Source: Terriglobia bacterium (GTDB taxonomy: Bacteria > Acidobacteriota > Terriglobia > JAIQFV01). From it: a stretch of DNA of 64,000 nucleotides. Location: positions 186,001-250,000 of the forward strand of contig JAIQFV010000010.1 of assembly GCA_020073085.1 (NCBI GenBank). Reading direction: 5' to 3'. Under the pieces are notes generated by a model that saw only the letters and a program-made list of their open reading frames with translations, ran no database searches and was not told where the DNA came from. Both the position numbers and the translations under genes were made by a program. This document shows, one piece after another, positions 51,091 to 54,149 of the stretch (its first letter is position 1; each line of letters begins with the position of its first letter).

Positions 51091-52203
51091 CTACAAAAGG
51101 TTCTCAATCGGCGTGTGTCTCAGTCTCTGCGCCCTGGCCACGGCTTCATAGGTGAGATGTCCGCGGTAGGTGTTGACCCCCTCGCGCAGCGCCGCACTCG
51201 CCTTCACGGCTTTGAGAAAACCATGGTTGGCAAGTGCCAGGCCAAACGGGAGGGTGGCATTGGTCAACGCGAAGGTGGACGTGCGTGGAACCGCACCCGG
51301 CATGTTGGCGACACAGTAGTGCAGGACCCCGTCAACAAAAAAAGTAGGATGGCTGTGGGTGGTCGGACGGGTGGTCTCAACACACCCTCCCTGATCGACC
51401 GCCACATCCACGATCACACTCCCTTTTTTCATCTCACGAATCATCCTGCGGGTCACCAACTTGGGCGCCGAAGCCCCGGGAATCAGCACCGCCCCCACGA
51501 GGAGATCGGCCTTCTTCGAACTCTCTGAGATGGTGTGTGTATTGGAAGCCAGCGTCGCGACGCGTCCATTAAAGACGTCATCAATGTAGCGGAGCTGGTT
51601 GAGGCTTTTATCCAGGATGGTGACCTGAGCTCCCAAGCCCATGGCCATCTTCGCGGCGTTCATCCCCACGACGCCACCCCCGATAATGACCACCTGTGCG
51701 GGCGGCACGCCGGGAACACCCCCCAACAGGACCCCGCGTCCGCCATTAATCTTTTCCAGGTACTGCGCCCCGACCTGGATGGACATGCGACCCGCCACCT
51801 CGCTCATTGGAGTGAGCAATGGCAAGCTCCCGTCTGTTTCCCGGATGGTCTCGTAGGCGACGGCAGTGACTTCCCGATCGAGCAACGCGCGGGTCAGCTT
51901 GGGCATGGGTGCCAGATGGAAATACGTGAAGATGATCTGTCCCTTCCGCATGCCTTTGAACTCGGACTCCAAAGGCTCTTTGACCTTCACAATCATTTCC
52001 GCTTTTTTCCAGACCTCCGCGGCCTGCGCTACGATTCGGGCCCCTGCGGCCCGGTATTCCGCATCGCTGATCCCGCTTCCTTCTCCCGCGTGCGCCTCCA
52101 CCAAGACGGTGTGGTGATGGTCCGCCAGGGCACGCACCCCCGCAGGAACCAAGCCGACCCGGTTCTCGTTGTCCTTGATCTCCTTGGGAACTCCGACAAT
52201 CAT
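51091..52203 (-). CDS. ald: Alanine dehydrogenase
   Basis: NAD-dependent reversible deamination of L-alanine to pyruvate and ammonia. The 370 residues match the family: [20 protein letters not shown] at the N-terminus with the substrate-binding arginine, the [10 protein letters not shown] segment (about 72-81), a Rossmann motif [20 protein letters not shown] (about 169-188), and [19 protein letters not shown] (about 264-282). The gene stands alone between the yceI region and an aldehyde dehydrogenase that lies 450 bp upstream on the same strand. Confidence 0.96.
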
Positions 52204-52368
52204 GATATGAGGCCTCCGCAGTCAAAAATTGGCGCTGAGTATAACACTCCGAAAAATTGAAGTCGAGATGAAGTTCGGCCCGGCCGGGAGGCCGGCGTAG
52301 GGGTTCGAAAAATCCTCCGGGCCGTGTAACCCTGGCGTCCGCATGGACGTCTAGTACTGGTGCTAGGG

Positions 52369-52521
52369 TGAGAGTTCGGCGAGACAGCAAACGAAGTGAC
52401 TGTCCTTCGTCTTGGGTGGTGTTCCTGCCGGACAGTCCTCGGTTCTTCCATCCAGGACTGCCGACGAAATCTCATTCGGCGCCTCCTGTTGAAGGGCCCC
52501 GGTTCGCCGGGGCCTTTTTTT
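52369..52521 (+). ncRNA. Structured small RNA candidate with its own terminator
   Basis: Nested inverse segments give a rod: TGAGA (52369-52373) with TCTCA (52470-52474), TCGGC (52376-52380) with GCCGA (52460-52464), and GACTGTCC (52398-52405) with GGACAGTC (52430-52437). They enclose an asymmetric internal loop, then a terminal loop of 24 nt. The 3' end is the terminator at 52495-52521. No open frame fits. No downstream gene is on this strand before the terminator, so a cis-acting riboswitch is unlikely. The shape is reminiscent of 6S RNA but shorter, and I do not recognise the sequence. The 5' end and promoter are not determined. Confidence 0.45.
52495..52521 (+). terminator. Strong Rho-independent terminator with UUCG loop
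   Basis: GGCCCCGG (52495-52502), TTCG loop, CCGGGGCC (52507-52514), then seven T (52515-52521). It reads on the + strand, although both neighbouring genes are on the minus strand, so some + strand transcript must end here. Confidence 0.9.
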
Positions 52522-52655
52522 GTCCGGGTTGAAGGCCGATGCGAAACGTGTCCGTCCTCGCAACATCGCTCGGGCGGTTCGTCCGTTCGCCCGACGAAAG
52601 ACCCCCGGTCTTGTACCTCCTGCTCAAATGCATGCCGCGGCGACCCGAAGCCCCC

Positions 52656-54149
52656 TCAATTATTGTCGATCTGGGCTCGCTGCAGTTTTCCGGAATAATC
52701 GATATACACGGACTTCCACTCGCTAAAAACATCAAGGGCGGCGGTTCCGGCCTCGCGATGTCCATTCCCCGTATTCTTCGTTCCGCCAAAGGGGAGGTGT
52801 ACCTCCGCCCCAATGGTGGAAGCGTTGACATAGAAGATCCCCGTATACATGTCGCGCATGGCATTGAATGCCCGGTTCACATCCTGCGTGTAGATGGCTG
52901 ACGAGAGGCCGTAGTCCACGCTGTTGCCAATCGCAACGGCTTCATCAAAACTATTGCAAGGAATGACCGAGACGACGGGCCCAAATATCTCTTCGCGCGC
53001 AATGCGCATCTTCGGATCCACATCCCCAAAAATCGTGGGCTCATGGAACCAGCCCTTGGAATAGACCCCCTTGGTCAGCCGATTTCCTCCGCAAAGCAGG
53101 TCGGCCCCTTCCTTTCGCCCGATCTTGACGTAGTTCAAAACCGTGTTGAGCTGGCTTTCATTGATTGAAGGTCCCATCTCCACCTCGGGGTTCAGGCCGT
53201 TTCCCACCCGAAGCTTCTTTGCCCGTTCCACGAACATCTTGATGAATTCCTTGTAAGCCCGCTTGTGGACCACGATCCGGGACGAGGCGGTGCACCGTTG
53301 GCCGGTGGTTCCAAAACCGCCCCATATCGCACCGTCGACGGCCAGGTCCAGCTTGGCATCGTCCATCACAATAATGACGTTTTTGCCTCCCATCTCCAAG
53401 TGGCAGTGTTTAAACTGCGGTGCGCAGGCCTCACTTACGGCGCGGCCCACATTCGTTGACCCGGTGAATGAGACGACCTTCACGTCGGGATGCGTCATGA
53501 GCGGGTCCCCTACGTCCGATCCCGATCCCGTCACAAGATTCAACACGCCCTTGGGCAAACCGCACTCATCGAGGGTTTTGACCAGGTTGATGGCCGACAG
53601 CGGGGTGTCGGTCGCCGGTTTGATGACCACCGTATTCCCGCACACCAGGGCCGGCATGATCTTCCACGAGGGAATCGCCATGGGAAAATTCCACGGTGTG
53701 ATCATCGCGCACACCCCCAACGGCATCCTTACACTCATCTGGAACTTGTTGGGCAATTCCGAGGGCGTCGTCTGCCCAAACATGCGGCGCCCTTCGCCGG
53801 CCATATAAAAGCTCATGTCGATGGCTTCCTGCACATCCCCCCGCGTTTCGTCCAGCACTTTGCCCATCTCACAAGTCATCTCGCGGGCGAACTCCTCCTT
53901 TTTCTCAACCAACCGATGCGCCGCCCGAAAAATGATCTCTGCTCGTTTCGGGGCTGGAAAGAGCCGCCATGTCTCGTAGGCTTTCTTTGCCGTCGCCACT
54001 GCCTTCTCGACGTCACGGCGGTCGGACTTCTGAAACAACCCGATCAACTCGTCCGTGTTGGCGGGGTTGCGGTTCTCAAACGTCTTTCCTGTGTGCGAAT
54101 CAACCCACTCGCCACCAACAAAATTCTTATAGACCTGCGCTTTACTCAT
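52656..54149 (-). CDS. NAD(P)-dependent aldehyde dehydrogenase
   Basis: Oxidises an aldehyde to the acid. The 497-residue protein has all family landmarks: [17 protein letters not shown] (about 153-169), [11 protein letters not shown] (about 231-241), LEMGGKN with the general-base Glu (about 254-260), GQRCTASSR with the catalytic Cys (about 288-296) and EEIFGPV (about 393-399). The ending [19 protein letters not shown] resembles the branch containing aminoadipic or piperideine-carboxylate semialdehyde enzymes, but substrate assignment by eye is not safe. A promoter with an embedded palindrome lies at 54289-54317. Confidence 0.92.

What the first reader, a model, noticed from the sequence alone, without database searches (positions are those of the whole stretch)
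52369..52521. Nested stems and a strong orphan terminator indicate an undescribed small RNA
A UUCG-capped terminator with seven T (52495-52521) reads on the + strand where no + strand gene exists. Upstream, three pairs of complementary segments nest to form a rod with a large internal loop. The rod-with-bubble form recalls 6S RNA but is shorter, and I do not recognise any known riboswitch consensus.
Basis: partly seen in the sequence, partly recalled or inferred. Interest (0 to 1): 0.6.

Follow-up and report, generated by a model that had tools for sequence, protein, structure and literature searches.

The report
Envelope-stress small RNA in an acidobacterium
A stretch between two enzyme genes of a soil acidobacterium very probably makes a small RNA of about 165 bases that is switched on by an envelope-stress sigma factor and probably blocks translation of secreted proteins, much like the stress RNAs known from E. 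coli but unrelated in sequence and in a phylum with very few described small RNAs.

Summary
The full 52355-52521 folds better than all 400 windows sampled here. All 3 genomes held of this order keep it beside the same gene, with the same fold, an invariant unpaired CCTCCTGTTGAA before the terminator, and a promoter TGTAAC-N17-CGTC. No Rfam family matches at its cut-off; the genome's 6S RNA lies elsewhere. The same promoter precedes an ECF sigma operon and MacB, HlyD, outer-membrane efflux, PAP2 and M14 peptidase genes, so the RNA looks like the non-coding arm of an envelope-stress regulon. The unpaired stretch is anti-Shine-Dalgarno; genes whose ribosome site carries its complement ACAGGAGG encode signal-peptide-like proteins in 15 of 19 cases against 11 of 44 for other AGGAGG sites. 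Best reading: an ECF-dependent, probably Hfq-assisted sRNA that lowers synthesis of exported proteins under envelope stress. Transcription, sigma dependence and targets are unmeasured. Works like MicA/RybB/FoxI; no sequence kinship found.

The parts
52325..52330 (+). -35 element TGTAAC of an ECF-type promoter
   Evidence: Identical in G001 and G002 with the same 17-base spacing; same element upstream of the ECF sigma operon
52348..52351 (+). -10 element CGTC of the ECF-type promoter (17 bases after TGTAAC)
52355..52521 (+). Predicted small RNA (start inferred at about 52357-52359 from the -10 element; end at the T-run)
   Evidence: Fold z -4.33, conserved fold in 3 of 3 genomes, covariance model R1 finds the 3 order members at 183.9, 180.5 and 125.5 bits (built from these three)
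52359..52373 (+). 5' arm of the closing stem
   Evidence: Pairs with 52470-52483; helix 1 of the consensus, 100% of cells paired in 3 genomes
52383..52404 (+). Hairpin I
   Evidence: consensus helix 2 with 3 pairs changed on both sides
52409..52458 (+). Hairpin II region (register differs between the single-sequence and the consensus fold)
   Evidence: consensus helix 3, 3 pairs changed on both sides, 87.8% of cells paired
52470..52483 (+). 3' arm of the closing stem
52482..52493 (+). Invariant CCTCCTGTTGAA, unpaired in its middle (52484-52490): anti-Shine-Dalgarno seed
   Evidence: 12 of 12 identical in 3 of 3 genomes while the interior has diverged; genes with the complement at the ribosome site are mostly signal-peptide-like
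52495..52521 (+). Intrinsic terminator, UUCG loop, seven T
51091..52203 (-). Neighbour: alanine dehydrogenase gene, divergent from the RNA
   Evidence: Pfam AlaDh_PNT_N and AlaDh_PNT_C
52656..54149 (-). Neighbour: aldehyde dehydrogenase gene, convergent with the RNA
   Evidence: Pfam Aldedh

Best explanation
The locus is a free-standing small RNA gene on the + strand (about 52357-52521). An ECF sigma factor of the envelope-stress kind, whose own operon carries the same promoter, transcribes it from TGTAAC-N17-CGTC. The RNA folds so that its 5' end and the stretch before the terminator close into a stem, which leaves one exposed segment, UCCUGUU within CCUCCUGUUGAA, between that stem and the terminator. 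This segment pairs with the ribosome-binding sites (ACAGGAGG and extensions towards UUCAACAGGAGG) of mRNAs for exported and outer-membrane proteins, blocks the ribosome and so lowers the load on the envelope under stress, probably with help from Hfq. Shown by computation: the fold and its conservation, the conserved promoter and its sharing with the sigma operon, the invariant seed, the bias of seed-complementary ribosome sites to signal-peptide-like genes, the presence of Hfq genes. Inferred: transcription, sigma dependence, direct repression, Hfq binding, the inducing stress.
For: Fold z -4.33, -3.62 and -5.03 in the three genomes; 93.9% of cells paired, 6 pairs changed on both sides, covariation score reached by 2 of 500 shuffles and by no slid version. 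Same place in 3 of 3 genomes of the order. Promoter TGTAAC-N17-CGTC in 3 of 3; 11 of 11 sites of G001 have a site at the corresponding place in G000 (10 paired by flank alignment, the eleventh, L117/L113, by the similar protein behind it). Downstream genes: an ECF sigma factor whose start codon lies 101 bases (G000) and 99 bases (G002) after the start of the site, followed by a putative anti-sigma (zf-HC2, below cut-off) and, in G000, an LTXXQ protein; MacB/FtsX, HlyD, OEP, PAP2, Peptidase_M14. Seed complement: genes with ACAGGAGG-N4-9-ATG are signal-like in 15 of 19 (G000), 11 of 17 (G001), 8 of 13 (G002) ORFs of 80 aa or more, against 11 of 44 with other AGGAGG sites in G000; one-sided Fisher 9e-5, 0.005, 0.019. 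Eight G000/G001 ortholog pairs keep ACAGGAGG. Hfq at about 97 bits in 3 of 3.
Against: No transcript data. The count of TGTAAC-N16/17-CGTC sites is not above the reversed-pattern control (18 vs 23, 11 vs 26, 14 vs 18), and some sites lie inside long ORFs (L159, L163, L164, L093, L102). A first target test, on 27 CarboxypepD_reg genes against 48 window genes, was not specific to the seed: several permuted tails behind the same CCUCC did as well. With the longer complement CAACAGGAG-N3-11-ATG no orthologous pair was seen by eye apart from the RNA locus itself, and no G002 gene is a clear ortholog of a G000 or G001 target. The target control comes from the first 100 of 612 places of G000 only and was set up; the bias could reflect how this lineage writes ribosome sites of secreted genes. 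Only three sequences support the covariation. The conserved CATTC next to the seed can also be read as a start codon on the other strand.
Confidence: 0.6

Rival explanations
1. A + strand small RNA of this ECF regulon with another mechanism: the anti-Shine-Dalgarno motif acts on ribosomes in general, or the RNA binds a protein, rather than pairing with a set of exported-protein mRNAs.
For: The exposed motif is simply anti-SD; seed specificity beyond CCUCC failed in the first target test; the fold is conserved beyond the seed.
Against: The bases beyond CCUCC (UGUUGAA) are as invariant as the core, and ribosome sites that match two bases further are biased to signal-peptide-like genes.
Confidence: 0.2
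2. The conserved element is on the - strand: an SD (AACAGGAGG) and ATG of a short leader peptide or small protein gene, with the terminator fold as a chance mirror.
For: CAACAGGAGGCGCCGAATG (G000, G001) and CAACAGGAGGGGTGAATG (G002) read as SD plus start codon on the - strand.
Against: The - strand ORFs are 91, 7 and 25 aa in the three genomes; the 91-aa one has no Pfam match; the T-run lies on the + side; the - strand folds worse (-62.7, against -77.6); the promoter lies on the + strand.
Confidence: 0.05
3. A small peptide gene on the + strand under the same ECF promoter.
For: Each RNA has an open frame that ends in the motif.
Against: Starts differ (TTG in the window, GTG in G001, ATG or TTG in G002), no shared start or SD, peptides of G002 and the others dissimilar except the last two residues.
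Confidence: 0.04
4. An ordinary terminator plus chance stems, or a 3' end serving the aldehyde dehydrogenase gene, not a free RNA.
For: Terminator-like sites are common; part of the z-score comes from the terminator.
Against: On the - strand the stem is not followed by T; promoter, closing stem and seed are conserved with it in 3 of 3 genomes.
Confidence: 0.06

Closest known systems
MicA and RybB, sigmaE-dependent small RNAs of Salmonella/E. coli (PMC1804206, abstract read)
   Same: Free-standing RNA driven by an envelope-stress ECF sigma factor; by the abstract they lower omp mRNAs. Here the promoter is shared with an ECF operon and predicted targets are exported proteins.
   Different: No Rfam match; longer, and the seed lies just before the terminator rather than near the 5' end (lengths and seed places of MicA and RybB recalled); repression not shown here.
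FoxI and FoxJ, sigmaE-dependent small RNAs of Fusobacterium nucleatum (PMC11005410, abstract and section 15 read)
   Same: ECF-driven envelope-stress RNA outside Proteobacteria; FoxJ is about 156 nt; C-rich seed.
   Different: F. nucleatum lacks Hfq and ProQ by that paper, these genomes encode Hfq; different phylum; homology not tested beyond Rfam.
6S RNA (Rfam RF00013)
   Same: Long closing stem, stand-alone RNA.
   Different: Not matched here; the genome's 6S is at G000:C17:48110-48292, 81.8 bits.
Rfam ncS54 and SorY
   Same: Sub-threshold matches within 52444-52523 (25.6 and 21.0 bits), mainly the terminator and, for SorY, CCUCC-CUGUUG-like text.
   Different: Far below the gathering scores 43 and 111.
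CcsR-type CCUCCUCCC RNAs of Rhodobacter (recalled; search listing only)
   Same: Anti-SD C-rich motif under stress sigma factors (recalled).
   Different: Motif in repeated hairpin loops there (recalled), one unpaired copy here.

Membership tests
ECF/sigmaE-dependent envelope-stress small RNAs (functional class) | Promoter of the same ECF sigma factor that directs the envelope-stress regulon | tested here: met
   TGTAAC-N17-CGTC shared with the ECF sigma operon and envelope genes; by sequence only
ECF/sigmaE-dependent envelope-stress small RNAs (functional class) | Free-standing transcript with an intrinsic terminator | tested here: met
   No + strand gene in front, terminator conserved; sequence evidence only
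ECF/sigmaE-dependent envelope-stress small RNAs (functional class) | Unpaired seed complementary to mRNAs of envelope or exported proteins | tested here: inconclusive
   Enrichment found with ACAGGAGG sites, not seed-specific with the receptor set; no ortholog-conserved long pairing
ECF/sigmaE-dependent envelope-stress small RNAs (functional class) | Induction by the sigma factor and repression of targets | not testable with these tools
   Needs expression data
Known Rfam sRNA families, MicA and RybB among them | Match at the family's gathering score | tested here: not met
   0 matches at gathering score in the whole window; weak matches up to E 10 are to other families
6S RNA | Match to RF00013 | tested here: not met
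   The one RF00013 match in the genome is at another place
Hfq-dependent small RNAs | Hfq present in the genome | tested here: met
   PF17209 at about 97 bits in 3 of 3 genomes
Hfq-dependent small RNAs | Binding of the RNA to Hfq | not testable with these tools
   Needs a binding experiment

The most novel reading that the evidence does not exclude
In this acidobacterial order an extended Shine-Dalgarno sequence, (UUCA)ACAGGAGG, serves as a shared address on many exported-protein mRNAs, and one envelope-stress RNA with the invariant complement switches them all down at once: a global, sequence-addressed brake on export rather than a list of individual targets.
Probability: 0.25. Interest if true: 0.72.

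Novelty: new member of a known kind. Interest (0 to 1): 0.52.

Why it matters
Small RNAs as the non-coding arm of an envelope-stress sigma factor are known from Proteobacteria and, by PMC11005410, from Fusobacteriota. A third RNA wired in the same way in Acidobacteriota, without found sequence kinship, would argue that this circuit arises repeatedly, and it comes with a concrete sigma factor, regulon and seed to test. A 2022 review lists 4 annotated sRNAs for Acidobacteria (PMC9029176, passages seen).

Tried and rejected
6S RNA: rejected, true 6S elsewhere. Known Rfam family: none at cut-off. Riboswitch: no + strand gene downstream, the next gene is convergent. Homologs beyond the order: DNA comparison over 101 genomes found 3; the promoter-plus-seed pattern over 399 class genomes hit 6, of which 2 (G001, G002) are real by eye; it missed the window itself because its gap is 131 bases and my limit was 130; model R1 over 399 class genomes gave 7, of which 4 (43.1 to 29.5 bits) rest on a terminator with little in front. 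So no homolog outside the order was found at these sensitivities. Paralog in the genome: one match only.

Target test 1 was not seed-specific. Target test 2 was positive. Rows: one search lists 79 places; 76 were analysed (left out: the RNA's own site in G000 and in G001, and one of two overlapping readings in G001; the RNA's own site in G002 was kept but drops out by length). Control: 95 of the first 100 listed of 612 places in G000, none of them preceded by AC; not fetched were four places that repeat the target set and one overlapping reading. With the stricter 'longest frame' filter: 14 of 18, 11 of 17, 8 of 12 against 9 of 36. An earlier, smaller version of the same comparison is (14 of 18 against 8 of 34). 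The signal-peptide rule is a crude hydrophobicity rule of my own. Reading three other ECF-site neighbourhoods for further RNAs gave nothing clear.

Papers: searches; no paper on an RNA like this in Acidobacteriota was seen in these listings; the text library is partial. PMC11636273 was searched for sRNA terms without a hit.

Full report
Setting. The window is part of an acidobacterial genome (G000, contig C10, 5.79 Mb in 68 contigs); the alanine dehydrogenase next to the finding is 98% and 84% identical to copies in MAGs labelled Terriglobia (phylum Acidobacteriota). The finding lies between a divergent alanine dehydrogenase gene (51091-52203, - strand) and a convergent aldehyde dehydrogenase gene (52656-54149, - strand; Pfam).

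Observation. The terminator is exactly as described. Starting at 52355 the fold gains a 14-pair closing stem (52359-52373 with 52470-52483) and reaches -77.6 kcal/mol, z -4.33, 0 of 200 shuffles. Among 400 windows of 167 bases sampled across the 64 kb and both strands none reaches this z; without the terminator z is -2.60 and 11 of 400 do, so the upstream fold alone is suggestive, not decisive.

Relatives. Of 101 genomes searched by DNA, 3 match: G000, G001 (83% over 233 bases) and G002; the order holds just these 3. L006 and L007 give the same alignments as G001 and G002. In all three the element sits upstream of ald in the same orientation. In G002 the interior has largely changed, yet CCTCCTGTTGAA and the terminator stem are invariant. 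Single folds of G001 and G002 show the same plan: closing stem, interior hairpins, an open seed, terminator (z -3.62 and -5.03). The consensus has 50 pairs, 93.9% of cells paired, 6 pairs changed on both sides; 4 of 500 shuffles reach each of these two values and 2 of 500 the covariation score; sliding the partners drops the pairing to 40-55%. In the closing stem the changes are one-sided (G-U to A-U, G-C to G-U and the like); the two-sided ones are in the hairpins. Three sequences, two of one genus, are a thin base. A covariance model built from the three finds only them among 399 class genomes, apart from 4 hits that rest on terminators.

Promoter. Upstream lies TGTAAC (52325-52330), 17 bases, CGTC (52348-52351), the form of ECF sigma promoters (recalled). 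It is present with the same spacing in G001 and G002. By count such sites are not enriched in the genomes over the reversed pattern. But 10 of 18 sites of G000 pair with sites of G001 by flank alignment and an eleventh pair precedes similar proteins, so 11 of 11 G001 sites have counterparts, although the spacers of the ten are only 83% identical (140 of 169; the flank averages printed there include two failed alignments). Genes behind the sites: an ECF sigma factor (Sigma70_r2, Sigma70_r4_2) in G000 and G002; next in the G000 operon a putative zf-HC2 anti-sigma (E 0.075, below cut-off) and an LTXXQ (CpxP/Spy-type) protein, then a DUF5666-like secreted protein with its own site; elsewhere a MacB/FtsX permease, HlyD proteins, an outer-membrane efflux protein, a PAP2 protein and an M14 peptidase. 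The corresponding G001 site is C14:686. This is an envelope-stress regulon by content, autoregulated by sequence, and the RNA carries its promoter. Several G000 sites inside long ORFs are probably chance.

Seed and targets. The unpaired 52484-52490 lies in the invariant CCUCCUGUUGAA, complementary to a Shine-Dalgarno sequence with extension. Against 27 CarboxypepD_reg genes the seed scored better than against 48 window genes (p 0.011), but so did CCUCC alone and several permuted tails: not specific. Next, genes with the complement ACAGGAGG 4-9 bases before ATG were collected in all three genomes. Signal-like N-termini: G000 15 of 19, G001 11 of 17, G002 8 of 13 ORFs of 80 aa or more; other AGGAGG sites in G000 11 of 44 (Fisher one-sided 9e-5, 0.005, 0.019). 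They include CarboxypepD_reg receptors in G000 and, by similarity to the G000 one, in G001 and G002, and a BON-like protein in G000 and G001 (name by eye). Eight ortholog pairs between G000 and G001 keep ACAGGAGG, expected in part from their closeness. The control covers only part of G000 and was designed after the first listing, so I treat this as support, not proof. With the longer complement CAACAGGAG no orthologous targets were seen.

Other readings. On the - strand the seed reads as SD plus ATG, but the frames are 91, 7 and 25 aa. + strand frames share no start. 6S is elsewhere. Hfq is encoded in all three genomes (about 97 bits).

Mechanism. Most likely: envelope damage frees the ECF sigma factor; it raises its operon, export and efflux genes and this RNA; the RNA's open anti-SD segment pairs with ribosome sites of exported-protein mRNAs and lowers their translation. 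Shown: sequence, fold, conservation, promoter sharing, target bias. Inferred: all dynamic steps. It works like MicA/RybB (PMC1804206, abstract) and FoxI/FoxJ (PMC11005410, abstract and one section), without matching any Rfam family.

Verdict. A real, previously unlisted small RNA with high probability (about 0.88 in my estimate), in an ECF envelope regulon (about 0.75), repressing exported proteins (about 0.5).

Noticed in passing
L160:1102-2672 (G000:C15) and L167:1100-2688 (G002:C39): Autoregulated ECF sigma operon: sigma factor, putative zinc-finger anti-sigma, LTXXQ (CpxP/Spy-type) protein, then a DUF5666-like secreted protein with its own copy of the promoter (the later genes of L167 judged by eye).
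   Followed up: partly
L111:1501-2148 (G000:C5:179247) and L095: The same promoter stands 647 bases before a sensor-like membrane protein (by eye); the long spacer is partly conserved and may hold a leader or another RNA.
   Followed up: partly
G000:C17:48110-48292: A clear 6S RNA (81.8 bits) in this genome, away from the window.
   Followed up: no
window 52238-52266, - strand: Promoter-like site of the alanine dehydrogenase gene with TG before the -10; the segment around it is conserved in all three genomes.
   Followed up: no
L091 (G226:C1:646733): In a distant class member TGTAAC-N16-CGTC precedes a small exported-looking protein, so the promoter type may be wider in the class.
   Followed up: no
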